DNA of 35,204 bases. It comes from Elusimicrobiaceae bacterium (GTDB lineage: Bacteria; Elusimicrobiota; Elusimicrobia; Elusimicrobiales; Elusimicrobiaceae). The stretch is taken from assembly GCA_017417005.1 (NCBI GenBank), contig JAFQAA010000017.1:1-35204 (forward strand), written 5' to 3'. Positions 19,632 through 35,180 of the stretch are shown here, piece by piece. How positions within the stretch are numbered: position 1 is the first letter of the stretch; the number at the start of each line of letters is the position of its first letter. Both the position numbers and the translations under genes were made by a program. The notes beneath the pieces are model-generated. The model worked only from the letters and a program-made list of their open reading frames with translations, was not told the DNA's origin and ran no database searches.

Positions 19632-19972
19632 CTCTTGATTGCCACATCTACACCGGCCGGTAAATCAAGTTTCATTAATTCATCAACGGTTTTAGAAGTG
19701 GGACTCTTAAGATCAATAAGTCTTTTGTGGATACGCATTTCAAATTGCTCTCTAGATTTTTTATCTGTATGGGGAGAGCGAAGAACTGTGTATTTGCGAA
19801 TTTTAACCGGTAAAAGAACCGGACCGCAAACTAAGGCGCCGGTTTTTCTGGCGGTATCAACAATTCTTGAAACAGAGTTATCCAACATTCTGTAATCATA
19901 AGAGCGAAGTTTAATGCGGATCCTTTCTTGTCCGCTTAACTTTGCTGTTTTCTTTTCTGTTTTTTCTGCCAT
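19625..19972 (-). CDS. rpsJ: 30S ribosomal protein S10 (NusE)
   Basis: A 115-residue S10, first gene of the superoperon. The core begins [11 protein letters not shown] near residue 18 and includes [19 protein letters not shown] and [10 protein letters not shown]. It has a short Lys-rich N-terminal extension. S10 also acts in transcription antitermination with NusB. An AGGAAA site precedes the start at rather long spacing. Confidence 0.97.
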
Positions 19973-20049
19973 TGTTTTTTGTTTTCCTAATTTCTTTTTT
20001 TAAAAAATATCTTTTTAAAAATCTTATCGCTTCCTTGCTTTTCTCTGAC

Positions 20050-20096
20050 GGCAAAACTCCAATTTTTGCCTTTTGTTTTTTTTGAGAAAACAAAGG
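20050..20096 (-). promoter_or_regulatory. Second and third hairpins of the S10 leader
   Basis: Two adjacent stems are seen. One pairs CC-TTTTGTTTT (from 20069) with AAAACAAAGG (to 20096), with one bulged base. The other pairs GGCAAAA (20050-20056) with TTTTGCC (20064-20070). They share bases 20069-20070, so they compete at their junction, a layout often seen in attenuators. No terminator T-run is evident after the promoter-distal stem. Confidence 0.45.
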
Positions 20097-20098
20097 GT

Positions 20099-20163
20099 CT
20101 AAAAGATACCTCTATGGCCGTTGTGTTAACTTGCAACAACCATAGTCCTGAGATTTCTTTTAG
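20099..20163 (-). ncRNA. Structured 5' leader element upstream of rpsJ
   Basis: A 65-base two-tier stem lies between promoter and rpsJ. The outer 8-bp stem CTAAAAGA/TCTTTTAG (20156-20163 with 20099-20106) encloses an asymmetric internal loop. The inner 12-bp stem is CTATGG-TT-GTTG with CAAC-GG-CCATAG (20134-20145 with 20112-20123), where the two central pairs are G-U wobbles in the minus-strand RNA only. That strand bias supports an RNA function. I do not recognise a known riboswitch; a ribosomal-protein autoregulatory leader is the simplest guess. Confidence 0.5.
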
Positions 20164-20189
20164 AGGCGATACAATACACCTACTCTTAT

Positions 20190-20220
20190 ATTATACCAAA
20201 TAATTTGGTATTTTTAACAA
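20190..20220 (-). promoter_or_regulatory. Promoter of the S10 superoperon (proximal), with palindrome in the spacer
   Basis: Minus strand: TTGTTA (20220-20215), 19-base spacer, then TATAAT (20195-20190) preceded by TGG, an extended -10. Transcription would begin near 20183, giving a leader of about 210 bases before rpsJ. A perfect 8+1+8 palindrome TACCAAAT-A-ATTTGGTA (20194-20210) fills the spacer and enters the -10 box, so a dimeric repressor could bind there; it may also be chance in AT-rich DNA. Confidence 0.65.
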
Positions 20221-20271
20221 TTTTTAAAAAATCTTCTTCAATTTTGTTAGGGCAAATTTTGCCTTGTTTAT

Positions 20272-20280
20272 ATTATAGCA
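20272..20280 (-). promoter_or_regulatory. Distal extended -10 promoter of the S10 superoperon
   Basis: TGCTATAAT on the minus strand (20280-20272). No good -35 box is present 17 bases upstream, as is typical for extended -10 promoters. A small palindrome GGCAAA-T-TTTGCC lies downstream of it near 20251-20263. The same TGCTATAAT box recurs upstream of rpmG. Confidence 0.45.
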
Positions 20281-20290
20281 TTTTTATAGC

Positions 20291-20332
20291 AAAACACCCG
20301 CTCTTTAAAAAAATAAAAAGGGCGGGTGTTTT
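20291..20332 (-). terminator. Terminator of the secreted Lys/Asn-rich protein gene
   Basis: AAAACACCCGC (20291-20301) pairs with GCGGGTGTTTT (20322-20332), extended inward by five further pairs including one wobble, around an A/T loop. The arms end in A/T runs, so it can terminate in either direction. It separates the secreted-protein gene from the S10 promoters. Confidence 0.8.
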
Positions 20333-20353
20333 AAATTTATAAACTAAATAAGT

Positions 20354-20872
20354 TTATTTTGTGGAAGTTGCTTCTTTCCAAGCATTTGCTTCTGCTTTAG
20401 CAGCATTTTTTGTGTTTCGCCAATTTTGCTTTACGCTTTTTTCAGTATTTTGAGCATTTTGCTTTGCCTGATTTTGACGATTTTTCCAATTCTGCCTCAT
20501 CTGATTGTGGCGTTCTTTCCAATTTTGTTTGGCCTGCTTTTCAGCATTTTTGGCATCTTTTTTTGCTTGGATTTTTTTGTTTTTAAAATCTTGTTTTGCC
20601 TGCTCCCATTTTGCTTTATTTTCCGCATTTTTTGCGGCATTTTCTTTTTGGGCATTGGTAACTTTTTCGTTCCAATTCTCTTTAGCTTCTTTTATATTTT
20701 GCTTTGCAGCTGCTTTATCTGCTTTATATTGCTCTTTTACAGATTTAACGGCTGCTTTAGCACATTCGTTTTTGCACGCAAGGTCTTCTGCTGTGCAAGA
20801 ACAGGTATCGGCGGCAAAAGAAACTGCGCCAAAGGCAACAAAAGTTGCTGTTAAGACAAATAATTTTTTCAT
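20354..20872 (-). CDS. Secreted Lys/Asn/Gln/Ala-rich protein with QNW repeats, function unknown
   Basis: A 172-residue protein I do not recognise. The start at M-K-K-L-F-V-L is chosen because AGGAGAAAC lies at ideal spacing; an ATG 21 bases upstream would overlap that site. A signal peptide (about 1-20, ending S-F-A) is followed by a small cysteine cluster (C24, C26 and two more C near residues 33-37). The rest is a charged, helix-prone low-complexity region with repeated (K/R)QNW(K/R) units and many A-K-N blocks, likely coiled coil. It could be a periplasmic polyanion-binding or envelope-spacing protein; this is speculation. It has its own promoter and terminator. Confidence 0.8.
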   Translation of the reverse strand: MKKLFVLTATFVAFGAVSFAADTCSCTAEDLACKNECAKAAVKSVKEQYKADKAAAKQNIKEAKENWNEKVTNAQKENAAKNAENKAKWEQAKQDFKNKKIQAKKDAKNAEKQAKQNWKERHNQMRQNWKNRQNQAKQNAQNTEKSVKQNWRNTKNAAKAEANAWKEATSTK

Positions 20873-20916
20873 TGTTAGTTTCTCCTTATACATAAGTTTG
20901 ATTTTATATACATAAA

Positions 20917-20925
20917 ATTATACCA
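20917..20925 (-). promoter_or_regulatory. Extended -10 promoter for the secreted protein gene
   Basis: TGGTATAAT on the minus strand (20925-20917), with no clear -35 box. Transcription would start near 20910, leaving a leader of roughly 38 bases before the ATG at 20872. It has the same extended form as the promoters of the S10 operon. Confidence 0.5.
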
Positions 20926-20953
20926 TTATTTATTATAAGTTTTGGAGATTTTT

Positions 20954-22251: not shown

Positions 22252-22995
22252 ATGGAAGAAAATAAAAACACTTGTAGTTGCACTAAAAAATATATTGCAT
22301 TTTTGATACTTGCCCTTGGCATTTTAGGGGCCGGTTTTGCAATAGGCTGTTATTATTACCACGCAAAAATGGATAATAATTTTGTAGTAGTCAAAGGTTT
22401 GGCCGAGCAAGATGTTAAAGCAGATCTTGCCGTGTGGGATTTAAAATATGTCCTAACCGGTAATGATGTTATTGCCTTGCAAAAGAAATTGACCGAACAA
22501 CAAAATATTATTGTTAACCACTTAAAAAAACAAGGCTTTGAAGATTCCGAAATTAATATCGGCCGCCTTAATACAAACGACCTTACCGCCAACCCTTATA
22601 GAAGCGAACAACTTGGCACGCGCTTTATTTTAAACCAAACAATCACTATCAGCAGCAAAAAAGTTGAACTGGTGGAAAAATCTATCGGCACTTTAAGCGA
22701 ACTTGTGGCCCAAGGTATTATTTTTGACAACCAGGAATATTCTTCCCCGGTTGCTTATATCTTTACAAAATTAAATGATATTAAGCCGCAAATGCTTAGC
22801 ACCGCGACAGAAAAGGCAAAAGCCGCCGCTAATGAATTTGCAAAAAGTTCCGGCACAAAAGTTGGCAAAATACACCGCGCCCAGCAAGGTGTGTTTTCCA
22901 TTTTACCTAGGGAAGAAGCCCCCGGTGTTATGGAATCACAACAAATAAACAAAAAAGTTCGCGTTGTTAGCACTATTGAATATTATTTAGATTAG
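22252..22995 (+). CDS. SIMPL domain (DUF541) membrane-anchored periplasmic protein
   Basis: A 247-residue protein with a cytoplasmic tail containing T-C-S-C, one membrane segment (about 15-35) and a SIMPL domain (about 43-245) starting V-V-V-K-G-L-A-E-Q-D-V-K-A-D, where most family members have G-x-G/A followed by V-x-A/P-D. The family is widespread in Gram-negative envelopes, related to BP26/OMP28, and its role is poorly defined. AAGGAG at proper spacing supports the start. A strong terminator follows immediately. Function beyond family name is not claimed. Confidence 0.88.
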   Translation: MEENKNTCSCTKKYIAFLILALGILGAGFAIGCYYYHAKMDNNFVVVKGLAEQDVKADLAVWDLKYVLTGNDVIALQKKLTEQQNIIVNHLKKQGFEDSEINIGRLNTNDLTANPYRSEQLGTRFILNQTITISSKKVELVEKSIGTLSELVAQGIIFDNQEYSSPVAYIFTKLNDIKPQMLSTATEKAKAAANEFAKSSGTKVGKIHRAQQGVFSILPREEAPGVMESQQINKKVRVVSTIEYYLD

Positions 22996-34100: not shown

Positions 34101-35180
34101 ATGGTAAAATTGAAACAAAAAGATTTTCTTAAGGAAACAATCAAACACATTGATATTAAAAAACATAATGTTGTTAAACTCGTTGACGATATGGCCGATA
34201 TGGCTTATACTTCAAGAGATTTAAACAGAGCTGCAAATATTTATAATTCAATGCTAAAAGAAAAAGATTGTTGCGTCTTTTTGACAATTGCCGGTTCCCT
34301 TGTTTCCGCCGGACTTAAAAAAGTTATTGTTGATATGATTCAAAATAATATGGTTGATGCAATAATTTCTAACGGCGCAAATATTATTGACCAAGATTTC
34401 TTTGAGGCTTTAGGTTATAAACACTATAAAGGCGATCAACATTTTGCCGATGACAACTTGCTACGCGATTTACATATTGACAGAATTTACGATACCTATA
34501 TTAACGAAGACGAACTTAAAGTTTGCGACGAAAGCGTGCATAAAATTTGCAATATGCTTGAGGCACGCCCTTATTCTTCCAGAGAATTTATTTATGAAAT
34601 GGGCAAATGGCTTGAAAAAAATAAAAAAGGTAAAGATTCAATTATCTATAATGCCTATAAAAAAGGGGTGCCTATATTTGTGCCGGCATTTTCTGATTGC
34701 TCTGCCGGTTTTGGCTTTGTAGCCCATCAAACAGAAAACCCCGTACACCATGTTTCTATTGACAGCGCAAAAGATTTCTTGGAACTTACCAAAATTAAAA
34801 TGGCAGCAAAAGAAAGCGGTCTTATGATGTTCTGCGGAGGTGTGCCAAAGAACTTTGTGCAAGACACCGTTGTGGCAGCAGAAATTTTGGGTGCAGATAT
34901 CCCTATGCATAAATATGCCGTTCAAATTACCGTTGCCGATGTTAGAGATGGTGCCCTGTCCGGTTCTACCTTAAAAGAAGCTTCCAGCTGGGGTAAAGTT
35001 TCCACCTCTCAAGAACAAATGGTTTATAGCGAAGCAACCTTAGCTATTCCTTTAATTATCGGTTATGGCTATCATAAAAAATCTTGGAAAAACAGAAAAG
35101 CCCATAACTATCAAAAATTCTTACAGGAAGAAGATAAAAAAGCCAAAACAGCAAAAACAACAAAATGTTCCTGCTGCTAA
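34101..35180 (+). CDS. Deoxyhypusine synthase-family protein (bacterial type)
   Basis: A 359-residue member of the deoxyhypusine synthase fold. Key parts are [10 protein letters not shown] (about 65-74, NAD region), M-M-F-C-G-G-V-P-K250-N-F (the catalytic-lysine region, K-H-H-x in eukaryotes) and E293-A-S-S-W-G-K299, matching the conserved E-A-x-S-W-G-K. Bacteria have no eIF5A, so relatives are thought to act on small polyamines, e.g. making homospermidine from putrescine or spermidine with NAD. The tail is Lys/Thr-rich and ends C-S-C-C. AGGAGG lies 10 bases upstream of the ATG. Proximity to mtnP supports a polyamine role. Confidence 0.88.

What the first reader, a model, noticed from the sequence alone, without database searches (positions are those of the whole stretch)
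20354..20872. Unrecognised secreted QNW-repeat, Lys/Asn-rich protein
A signal peptide, a four-cysteine N-terminal cluster and a long basic helical low-complexity region with (K/R)QNW(K/R) units make a distinctive protein of unknown role, with its own promoter and terminator, next to the ribosomal superoperon.
Basis: partly seen in the sequence, partly recalled or inferred. Interest (0 to 1): 0.5.

Follow-up and report, generated by a model that had tools for sequence, protein, structure and literature searches.

The report
Secreted three-faced helix protein of Elusimicrobiota
A small secreted protein that looks like one long, positively charged helix belongs to a so far unnamed protein family that most Elusimicrobiaceae bacteria searched carry, and it probably coats or braces their cell envelope.

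Summary
The gene is real (window 20354-20872, minus strand, 172 aa): signal peptide, CxC-x6-C-x3-C head, Lys/Asn/Gln-rich helix, three exact (K/R)QNW(K/R) units. It has no Pfam match at E<=1 and nothing over an NCBIfam cut-off. It belongs to an undescribed family that, at this sensitivity, is confined to one bacterial family, Elusimicrobiaceae: the head region is matched in 67 of 90 genomes there and in 0 of 250 others of the phylum. A probable Elusimicrobium minutum homologue lacks the cysteines but keeps the C-terminal EKEAWK motif. The QNW units are a local decoration of an 11-residue repeat. Summed over relatives, hydrophobic residues recur every 3.62 residues (straight helix, not the 3.5 of a coiled coil). 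All six Trp fall on one face. Lys/Arg lie on one side and Asp/Glu on the other side of the hydrophobic stripe in 42 of 45 genomes' proteins (shuffles: mean 14.8, maximum 25). AlphaFold draws one helix, residues 31-170. Its place beside the S10 operon is incidental. Most likely function (inferred, about 0.35): a cationic helical rod lying on an anionic envelope surface, working like Asr, group 3 LEA or Lpp proteins without shown membership in any. Function is untested.

The parts
20354..20872 (-). CDS, 172 aa, secreted Cys-headed cationic helix protein
   Evidence: homologues
20813..20872 (-). signal peptide, residues 1-20 (probable signal peptidase I site SFA|AD, by eye)
   Evidence: sequence; A20 invariant in alignment A1
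20762..20803 (-). four-cysteine head C24-x-C26-x6-C33-x3-C37 with Asp30
   Evidence: invariant in 20 of 20 rows; exact spacing in 44 of 45 genomes' proteins taken without a Cys filter
20363..20782 (-). predicted long single helix, residues 31-170, with 11-residue repeat
   Evidence: AlphaFold; repeat; helical period
20399..20530 (-). stretch with the three QNW units (residues 115-158), four 11-residue repeats in register
20357..20392 (-). conserved C-terminal motif E161-x-x-A164-W165-K (residues 161-172)
   Evidence: Trp in the last 12 residues in 45 of 45
20882..20887 (-). ribosome-binding site AAGGAG
   Evidence: sequence; conserved in relative
20917..20937 (-). promoter-like stretch with two TATAAT boxes, one preceded by TGG
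   Evidence: not above chance by count alone
20290..20333 (-). terminator-like hairpin with short U run, nearly symmetrical
   Evidence: z -4.65 for the folded stretch 20262-20360

Best explanation
It is one member of a clade-specific family of secreted proteins of Elusimicrobiaceae. Shown by computation: signal peptide; Cys head; a Lys-rich, helix-predicted region of variable length (100-232 residues) whose residues sort into a narrow Ala/Trp stripe, a Lys face and an acidic/amide face along a straight helix; a conserved C-terminal E..AWK motif. Inferred: after export the protein is a stiff rod some 20 nm long in the periplasm or on the surface. Asp30 and the cysteines cap and staple the start of the helix. 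The Lys face and the Ala/Trp stripe lay the rod on an anionic envelope surface (outer-membrane lipid, LPS or wall polymer). Because the charged faces have a fixed handedness, neighbouring rods could pack side by side in parallel, Lys face to acidic face, and so brace or shield the envelope, as Asr or group 3 LEA proteins are thought to shield cells under stress. The extra Trp of this species would strengthen surface binding.
For: Head region matched in 67 of 90 family genomes. In one protein from each of 45 genomes, taken without a Cys or Lys filter, the head spacing is exact in 44, net charge is positive in 45 and the C-terminal Trp is present in 45. Summed helical period 3.62 with background at 3.5 (34 proteins), and 3.61 without the query and its two closest relatives. 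Six Trp on one face, R=0.93, p=0.0006 for random positions, 0.002 with the angle left free. Lys/Arg on the plus side and Asp/Glu on the minus side of the stripe in 33 of 35 (shuffles mean 11.5, maximum 21) and 42 of 45 (mean 14.8, maximum 25). AlphaFold: helix 31-170, pLDDT about 90 from residue 61 to 160; a second member, helix 31-147; Asp30 lies just before the helix in both. The probable E. minutum homologue lacks Cys but keeps the faces (+110/-109) and the C-terminal motif, so the helix and the C-terminal end look like the core.
Against: No functional, expression or localisation data. AlphaFold tends to draw Lys/Ala-rich low-complexity sequence as one helix (recalled); pTM is 0.36 and 0.32, so the region could be disordered in solution. 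Single proteins vary: the best period lies between 3.58 and 3.68 in 23 of 34 and elsewhere in 11, and the power at 11/3 beats shuffles at p<0.05 in 12 of 34. Some charge pairing typical of single helices is present too: K/R at E/D+3 is 1.25 and at E/D-4 is 1.19 times expected, though +4 (0.81) and -3 (0.64) are depleted and +/-2 is strongest (1.45, 1.57). Codon usage is ordinary: 22% of 63 background ORFs score at least as high, and the score is below that of all 23 ribosomal genes. Neighbours differ between genera. The gene is not found in some nearly complete relatives, e.g. G014, 99%. The counted sequences are related, not independent.
Confidence: 0.35

Rival explanations
1. Spacer or tether: the Cys head docks at one membrane or partner, the C-terminal AWK motif at another, and the helix is a ruler, as in Lpp or TolA domain II.
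For: Two conserved ends joined by a fast-changing helix; 27 of 33 proteins and 42 of 45 end in Lys; a weak E=0.072 match of the Cys-less homologue to Lpp/OprI alanine-zipper lipoproteins.
Against: Helical region varies from 100 to 232 residues among relatives; no lipobox (ADTC before C24) and no second hydrophobic stretch; no YkuD transpeptidase at E<=0.001 in 4 of 5 genomes, the exception being G018; OmpA-type wall anchors already present in 5 of 5; summed period 3.62, not 3.5.
Confidence: 0.2
2. Secreted stress chaperone of the Asr/LEA kind: a basic, partly disordered protein that buffers or keeps other periplasmic proteins soluble in acid or bile.
For: Asr profile matched over residues 1-116 at E=0.00067, while none of 5 shuffles and not the copy with its mature part reversed matched Asr at E<=1; 3 of 20 members match Asr at E<=0.1, best 4.3e-7; 11-residue repeat as in group 3 LEA; expression of a Lys-rich LEA peptide improved E. 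coli viability at pH 4 (PMC12871917, passages read).
Against: 20.4 bits against an Asr cut-off of 50; unrelated profiles match more members than Asr does (11, 10 and 7 of 20); the probable E. minutum homologue does not match Asr at E<=1; the group 3 LEA consensus is fitted beyond shuffles in only 13 of 35; face arrangement differs from the LEA motif; Cys head and Trp motif.
Confidence: 0.2
3. Nucleic-acid binding protein outside the cytoplasm (for DNA uptake or matrix), using the Lys/Asn/Gln faces.
For: Lys/Ala/Asn/Gln composition, net +20 after the Cys head; a type IV pilin-like FTLIELL motif is encoded in 16 of 35 sister-genus loci (motif name recalled); the phiX174 pilot protein tube also has 11-residue repeats and an Asn/Gln/Arg lining (PMC7354561, passages read).
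Against: Only weak matches to nucleic-acid proteins (RNase E E=0.68; RNase Y in 3 of 20 members, best 0.015), no better than to unrelated families; no pilin-like motif in 10 of 10 same-genus loci. Uptake genes were not otherwise searched for.
Confidence: 0.1
4. Metal-binding or metal-sensing protein using the four cysteines.
For: CxC and CxxxC spacing; no DsbA over cut-off in 5 of 5 genomes (weak matches in 2), so disulphides are not assured; MntP-family pumps lie near it in 18 of 35 sister-genus loci.
Against: The probable E. minutum homologue has no cysteine and the G015 copy has two; no MntP hit in 10 of 10 same-genus loci tested, flanks about 1.5 kb or wider.
Confidence: 0.08

Closest known systems
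Asr, acid shock periplasmic basic protein (NF033636)
   Same: Signal peptide, short, strongly basic, repetitive; weak profile match along residues 1-116
   Different: 20.4 bits against cut-off 50; Cys head, Trp motif and ordered helical faces that Asr is not known to have (recalled)
Group 3 LEA proteins (11-residue motif; LEA_4)
   Same: 11-residue repeat, hydrophilic helix; the query fits the published consensus better than shuffles
   Different: No LEA_4 match at E<=0.1 in 20 members; Lys and acid faces on opposite sides with a handedness, whereas in a schematic LEA motif acids lie opposite the stripe and Lys on both flanks; exported; Cys and Trp
Lpp/OprI alanine-zipper lipoproteins
   Same: Small exported Ala/Lys helix, mostly ending in Lys
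   Different: No lipobox, non-heptad period, much longer (Lpp has about 58 residues, recalled), YkuD not found in 4 of 5 genomes
Skp/OmpH periplasmic chaperone (PF03938)
   Same: Exported, basic, helical (Skp recalled)
   Different: No match at E<=1; these genomes carry a separate OmpH-like protein
TolA domain II
   Same: Lys/Ala/Glu-rich long periplasmic helix (recalled)
   Different: No membrane anchor after signal cleavage and no TolA model among the matches

Membership tests
Asr (NF033636) | score over curated cut-off of 50 bits | tested here: not met
   20.4 bits
Asr (NF033636) | similarity beyond signal peptide and composition | tested here: inconclusive
   0 of 5 shuffles and 0 of 1 reversed copy match Asr at E<=1, but only six controls, and unrelated profiles match more family members than Asr
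Group 3 LEA / LEA_4 | Pfam model match | tested here: not met
   none of 20 members at E<=0.1
Group 3 LEA / LEA_4 | 11-residue consensus as given in PMC10295645 | tested here: inconclusive
   query fit 0.52 against 0.39 in shuffles; p<0.05 in 13 of 35; no true LEA control was run and shuffles do not keep periodicity
Lpp/OprI lipoprotein | lipobox cysteine at the cleavage site | tested here: not met
   A-D-T-C24, probable cleavage three residues earlier
Lpp/OprI lipoprotein | heptad coiled coil | tested here: not met
   summed peak at 3.62; 3.5 at background
Lpp/OprI lipoprotein | C-terminal Lys joined to wall by a YkuD enzyme | tested here: inconclusive
   Lys end in 27 of 33; no YkuD in G000 (90% complete), G006, G001, G026, but one in G018; the link itself cannot be tested
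Skp/OmpH | PF03938 match | tested here: not met
   no Pfam match at E<=1
This family (Cys-headed Elusimicrobiaceae helix) | signal peptide, CxC-x6-C-x3-C head, basic 11-residue helix, C-terminal Trp motif | tested here: met
Periplasmic location | found in periplasm or on the surface | not testable with these tools
   signal peptide by eye only

The most novel reading that the evidence does not exclude
The handed three-face pattern is an assembly code: helices lock side by side in parallel, Lys face to acid face, into a sheet or tube in the periplasm or on the surface, with the Cys heads and Trp tails as the two edges. This would be a previously unknown kind of bacterial envelope scaffold built from single low-complexity helices.
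Probability: 0.1. Interest if true: 0.7.

Novelty: new variant of a known kind. Interest (0 to 1): 0.4.

Why it matters
Most Elusimicrobiaceae genomes searched carry this gene (67 of 90), yet none of the four family libraries tried names it, and my paper searches found no description of it (listings only). If the helix really lies on or braces the envelope, it is a compact example of a low-complexity sequence whose physical pattern (period, faces, handedness) is conserved while its letters are not, and it offers a target for biochemistry by expression in a laboratory E. coli.

Tried and rejected
Tried and rejected: (1) Composition artefact: rejected, because the 11-residue repeat, the helical period and the face pattern exceed shuffles and the head is conserved. 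(2) Role tied to the S10 operon: rejected, the neighbourhood is local. (3) Heptad coiled coil: not supported. (4) High expression by codon usage: not supported. (5) A1 matches in G050 and G075 are a different protein on inspection. Among the 67 genomes, G063 has only a 52-residue open frame with the head and looks degraded, and G015 has two of the four cysteines; both are counted. (6) Solved-structure searches gave nothing at E<=1 for the protein and 13 chance-level hits (E 0.25-1, mostly ATP synthase stalk subunits) for the alignment. (7) PHROGs and PADLOC gave only weak matches (best E 0.015 tape measure, 0.022 ZorA). (8) No fold search was run, because a single helix would match too much. 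(9) The first genome-contig scan with the single protein confirmed no relative; the second, with sister-genus members, confirmed 13. (10) Paper searches (listings only) showed no description of this family. (11) The 33 proteins were picked by a script that required the Cys pattern, over 15% Lys and over 90 residues, so their Cys and charge counts are partly by construction; one search repeated the counts without these filters, though its loci were still chosen by profile or protein matches.

Full report
What is there. The gene at 20354-20872 (-) encodes 172 residues: signal peptide (by eye), C24-x-C26-x6-C33-x3-C37, then a Lys/Asn/Gln/Ala-rich stretch to a C-terminal EANAWKEATSTK. The three exact (K/R)QNW(K/R) units start at residues 115, 126 and 148, with a KENWN at 64. 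A hairpin at 20290-20333 (z -4.65 for the folded stretch) can end its transcript; the rule-based scan did not list it. The promoter-like stretch is conserved in the nearest relative but is not above chance by consensus counts.

Where it occurs. The protein finds one copy in its own genome and matches in 47 of 199 genomes, its own included. A 20-row alignment finds 70 of 90 genomes of its family at E<=1e-5, of which G050 and G075 are a different protein. An alignment of the N-terminal head alone, over 340 genomes of the phylum, matches 83 at E<=0.001. By my count from its list, 67 of these matches run through the cysteine positions: 12 of 18 genomes of the same genus, 55 of 66 of the sister genus, none among the 250 outside the family. 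The other 16 cover only the first 21-34 positions, essentially the signal peptide. Within the 67, G063 has only a short frame and G015 two cysteines. Named relatives are 13 loci whose records are named as Elusimicrobiales, Elusimicrobium, Elusimicrobiaceae, Candidatus Avelusimicrobium or (two) uncultured bacterium; the nearest relative lies in a sheep-rumen Elusimicrobiaceae genome, RGIG6771 (L072; its contig has the same length, 238,907 bases, as G006:C24). A genome in a single 1,643,562-base contig (G018, probably E. minutum by my recollection of its size) has a homologue without cysteines that keeps the C-terminal SLKAEKEAWKNIAK. Used as a query it returns 22 of 90 family genomes: itself, 20 loci already found with the alignment, and one new locus in G025.

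Anatomy of the family. Among 33 proteins from the first 30 loci, picked by a script that required the Cys pattern and over 15% Lys, 32 have exactly C-x-C-x6-C-x3-C, 33 have an Asp between the cysteine pairs, 33 have a Trp in the last 12 residues with a Glu shortly before it, and 27 end in Lys. Without those filters, one protein from each of 45 genomes: exact head 44, Trp in last 12 residues 45, net positive 45, Lys end 42. In the 33, net charge after the head is +6 to +31 and the region is 100-232 residues long; self-identity at 11 residues is raised in 33 of 33 (z at least 3.1) and is the strongest lag tested in 19, with 18 residues or another lag stronger in the rest. The QNW units sit in register in this repeat. 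Trp outside the C-terminal motif and the signal peptide is found only in this protein and in those of G006 and G007, so QNW is probably a late addition.

Physical pattern. The hydrophobic residues have a summed periodogram peak at 3.62 residues (169.5; 34 proteins, about 34 expected by chance) and background at 3.5 (38.6). Singly, the best period lies between 3.58 and 3.68 in 23 of 34, and the power at exactly 11/3 beats shuffles at p<0.05 in 12 of 34. Without the query, G006 and G007 the summed peak is at 3.61 (130.8, about 32 expected). That is the pitch of an undistorted helix, not of a heptad coiled coil. The six Trp of the query share one face (R=0.93; p=0.0006 for random positions at this angle, 0.002 with the best angle from 96 to 104 degrees). 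Relative to the hydrophobic stripe, Lys/Arg lie on the plus side and Asp/Glu on the minus side in 33 of 35 proteins (33 plus the G018 and G015 homologues; 200 shuffles of the non-hydrophobic residues: mean 11.5, maximum 21), and in 42 of 45 in the unfiltered set (mean 14.8, maximum 25). Asn/Gln share the acidic side in the query. A first test by angular spread did not separate the data from its shuffles (0.90 against 0.90 for Lys/Arg; 0.84 against 0.73, maximum 0.86, for Asp/Glu), because any polar class avoids the stripe; the handedness test replaced it. The proteins are related, so these counts overstate independence.

Structure. AlphaFold with 14 sequences gives a helix 31-170, mean pLDDT 81.1, pTM 0.36; a sister-genus member gives a helix 31-147, mean 76.1, pTM 0.32. 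The head is not confidently placed. Asp30, invariant in the alignment, is the residue before the helix, as a helix cap would be, and C33 and C37 lie in its first turns (inference: the cysteines staple the cap). Single-helix models of such sequences should be read with caution.

Context. In 45 loci, one per genome (10 same-genus, 35 sister-genus; flanks mostly 1.5 kb), S10 is beside the gene in 3 of 10 same-genus loci, RmuC in 2 and a GGDEF protein in 5; in the sister genus a DUF1646 transporter in 35 of 35 and an MntP-family pump in 18 of 35 (names). A pilin-like motif is encoded in 16 of 35 sister-genus and 0 of 10 same-genus loci. In the seven loci I looked at for direction (L002, L004, L005, L010, L013, L020, L022) the gene is divergent from the named neighbour. 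Codon usage is ordinary. Five genomes were tested for envelope genes: OmpA-type proteins 5 of 5, OmpH-like 5 of 5 at E<=0.001 and 4 of 5 over cut-off, YkuD 1 of 5, DsbA over cut-off 0 of 5.

Interpretation. Shown: a conserved exported family with a cysteine head, a three-faced helical sequence and a C-terminal motif. Inferred: a rod on an anionic envelope surface, with possible parallel side-by-side packing because the handed faces make a parallel neighbour present its acid face to the Lys face. Rivals are a spacer, an Asr/LEA-like chaperone, a nucleic-acid binder and a metal binder; the evidence for and against each is in its own section.

Known relatives. Asr is the nearest named profile, below its cut-off (20.4 against 50 bits). 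Six shuffled or reversed controls do not reproduce the match, but unrelated profiles match more family members than Asr does and the E. minutum homologue does not match it, so I do not file it there. Group 3 LEA proteins share the 11-residue repeat; their consensus (PMC10295645, passages read) is fitted beyond shuffles in 13 of 35, the charged faces are arranged differently in a schematic of that motif, and LEA_4 does not match at E<=0.1. Expression of an engineered Lys-rich LEA peptide improved E. coli viability at pH 4 (PMC12871917, passages read), which makes the stress rival testable.

Verdict. It is a new variant of a known broad kind (exported basic helical proteins); its function remains open.

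Noticed in passing
window 19966-20200 (-), upstream of rpsJ: Strongly structured leader of the S10 operon (z -4.92 for 19966-20190); its stretch 20040-20200 is 94-96% identical in G006 and G007 with partial matches in G005, G017 and G012 (6 of 90 family genomes including the own one), and has no Rfam match over a gathering score. Possible autoregulatory leader.
   Followed up: partly
window 34101-35180 (+): Deoxyhypusine-synthase relative that passes the NCBIfam cut-off for 1,9-bis(guanidino)-5-aza-nonane synthase (588.5 against 500 bits).
   Followed up: no
window 22252-22995 (+): SIMPL (DUF541) protein next to RmuC.
   Followed up: no
L012, L015, L016: Tandem second copies of the helix protein in three sister-genus genomes (G041, G064, G061) with a different, acidic end (VDWEAVVEE/N).
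   Followed up: no
L075 2095-2211: Only a 52-residue open frame with the Cys head is left in G063; the gene looks degraded there.
   Followed up: no
L076 1733-2356, L077 1801-2550: A different exported Lys-rich protein with CKGDECP after the signal peptide and a Pro-rich end, next to a protein that looks like an anti-sigma factor (name by eye, no call).
   Followed up: no
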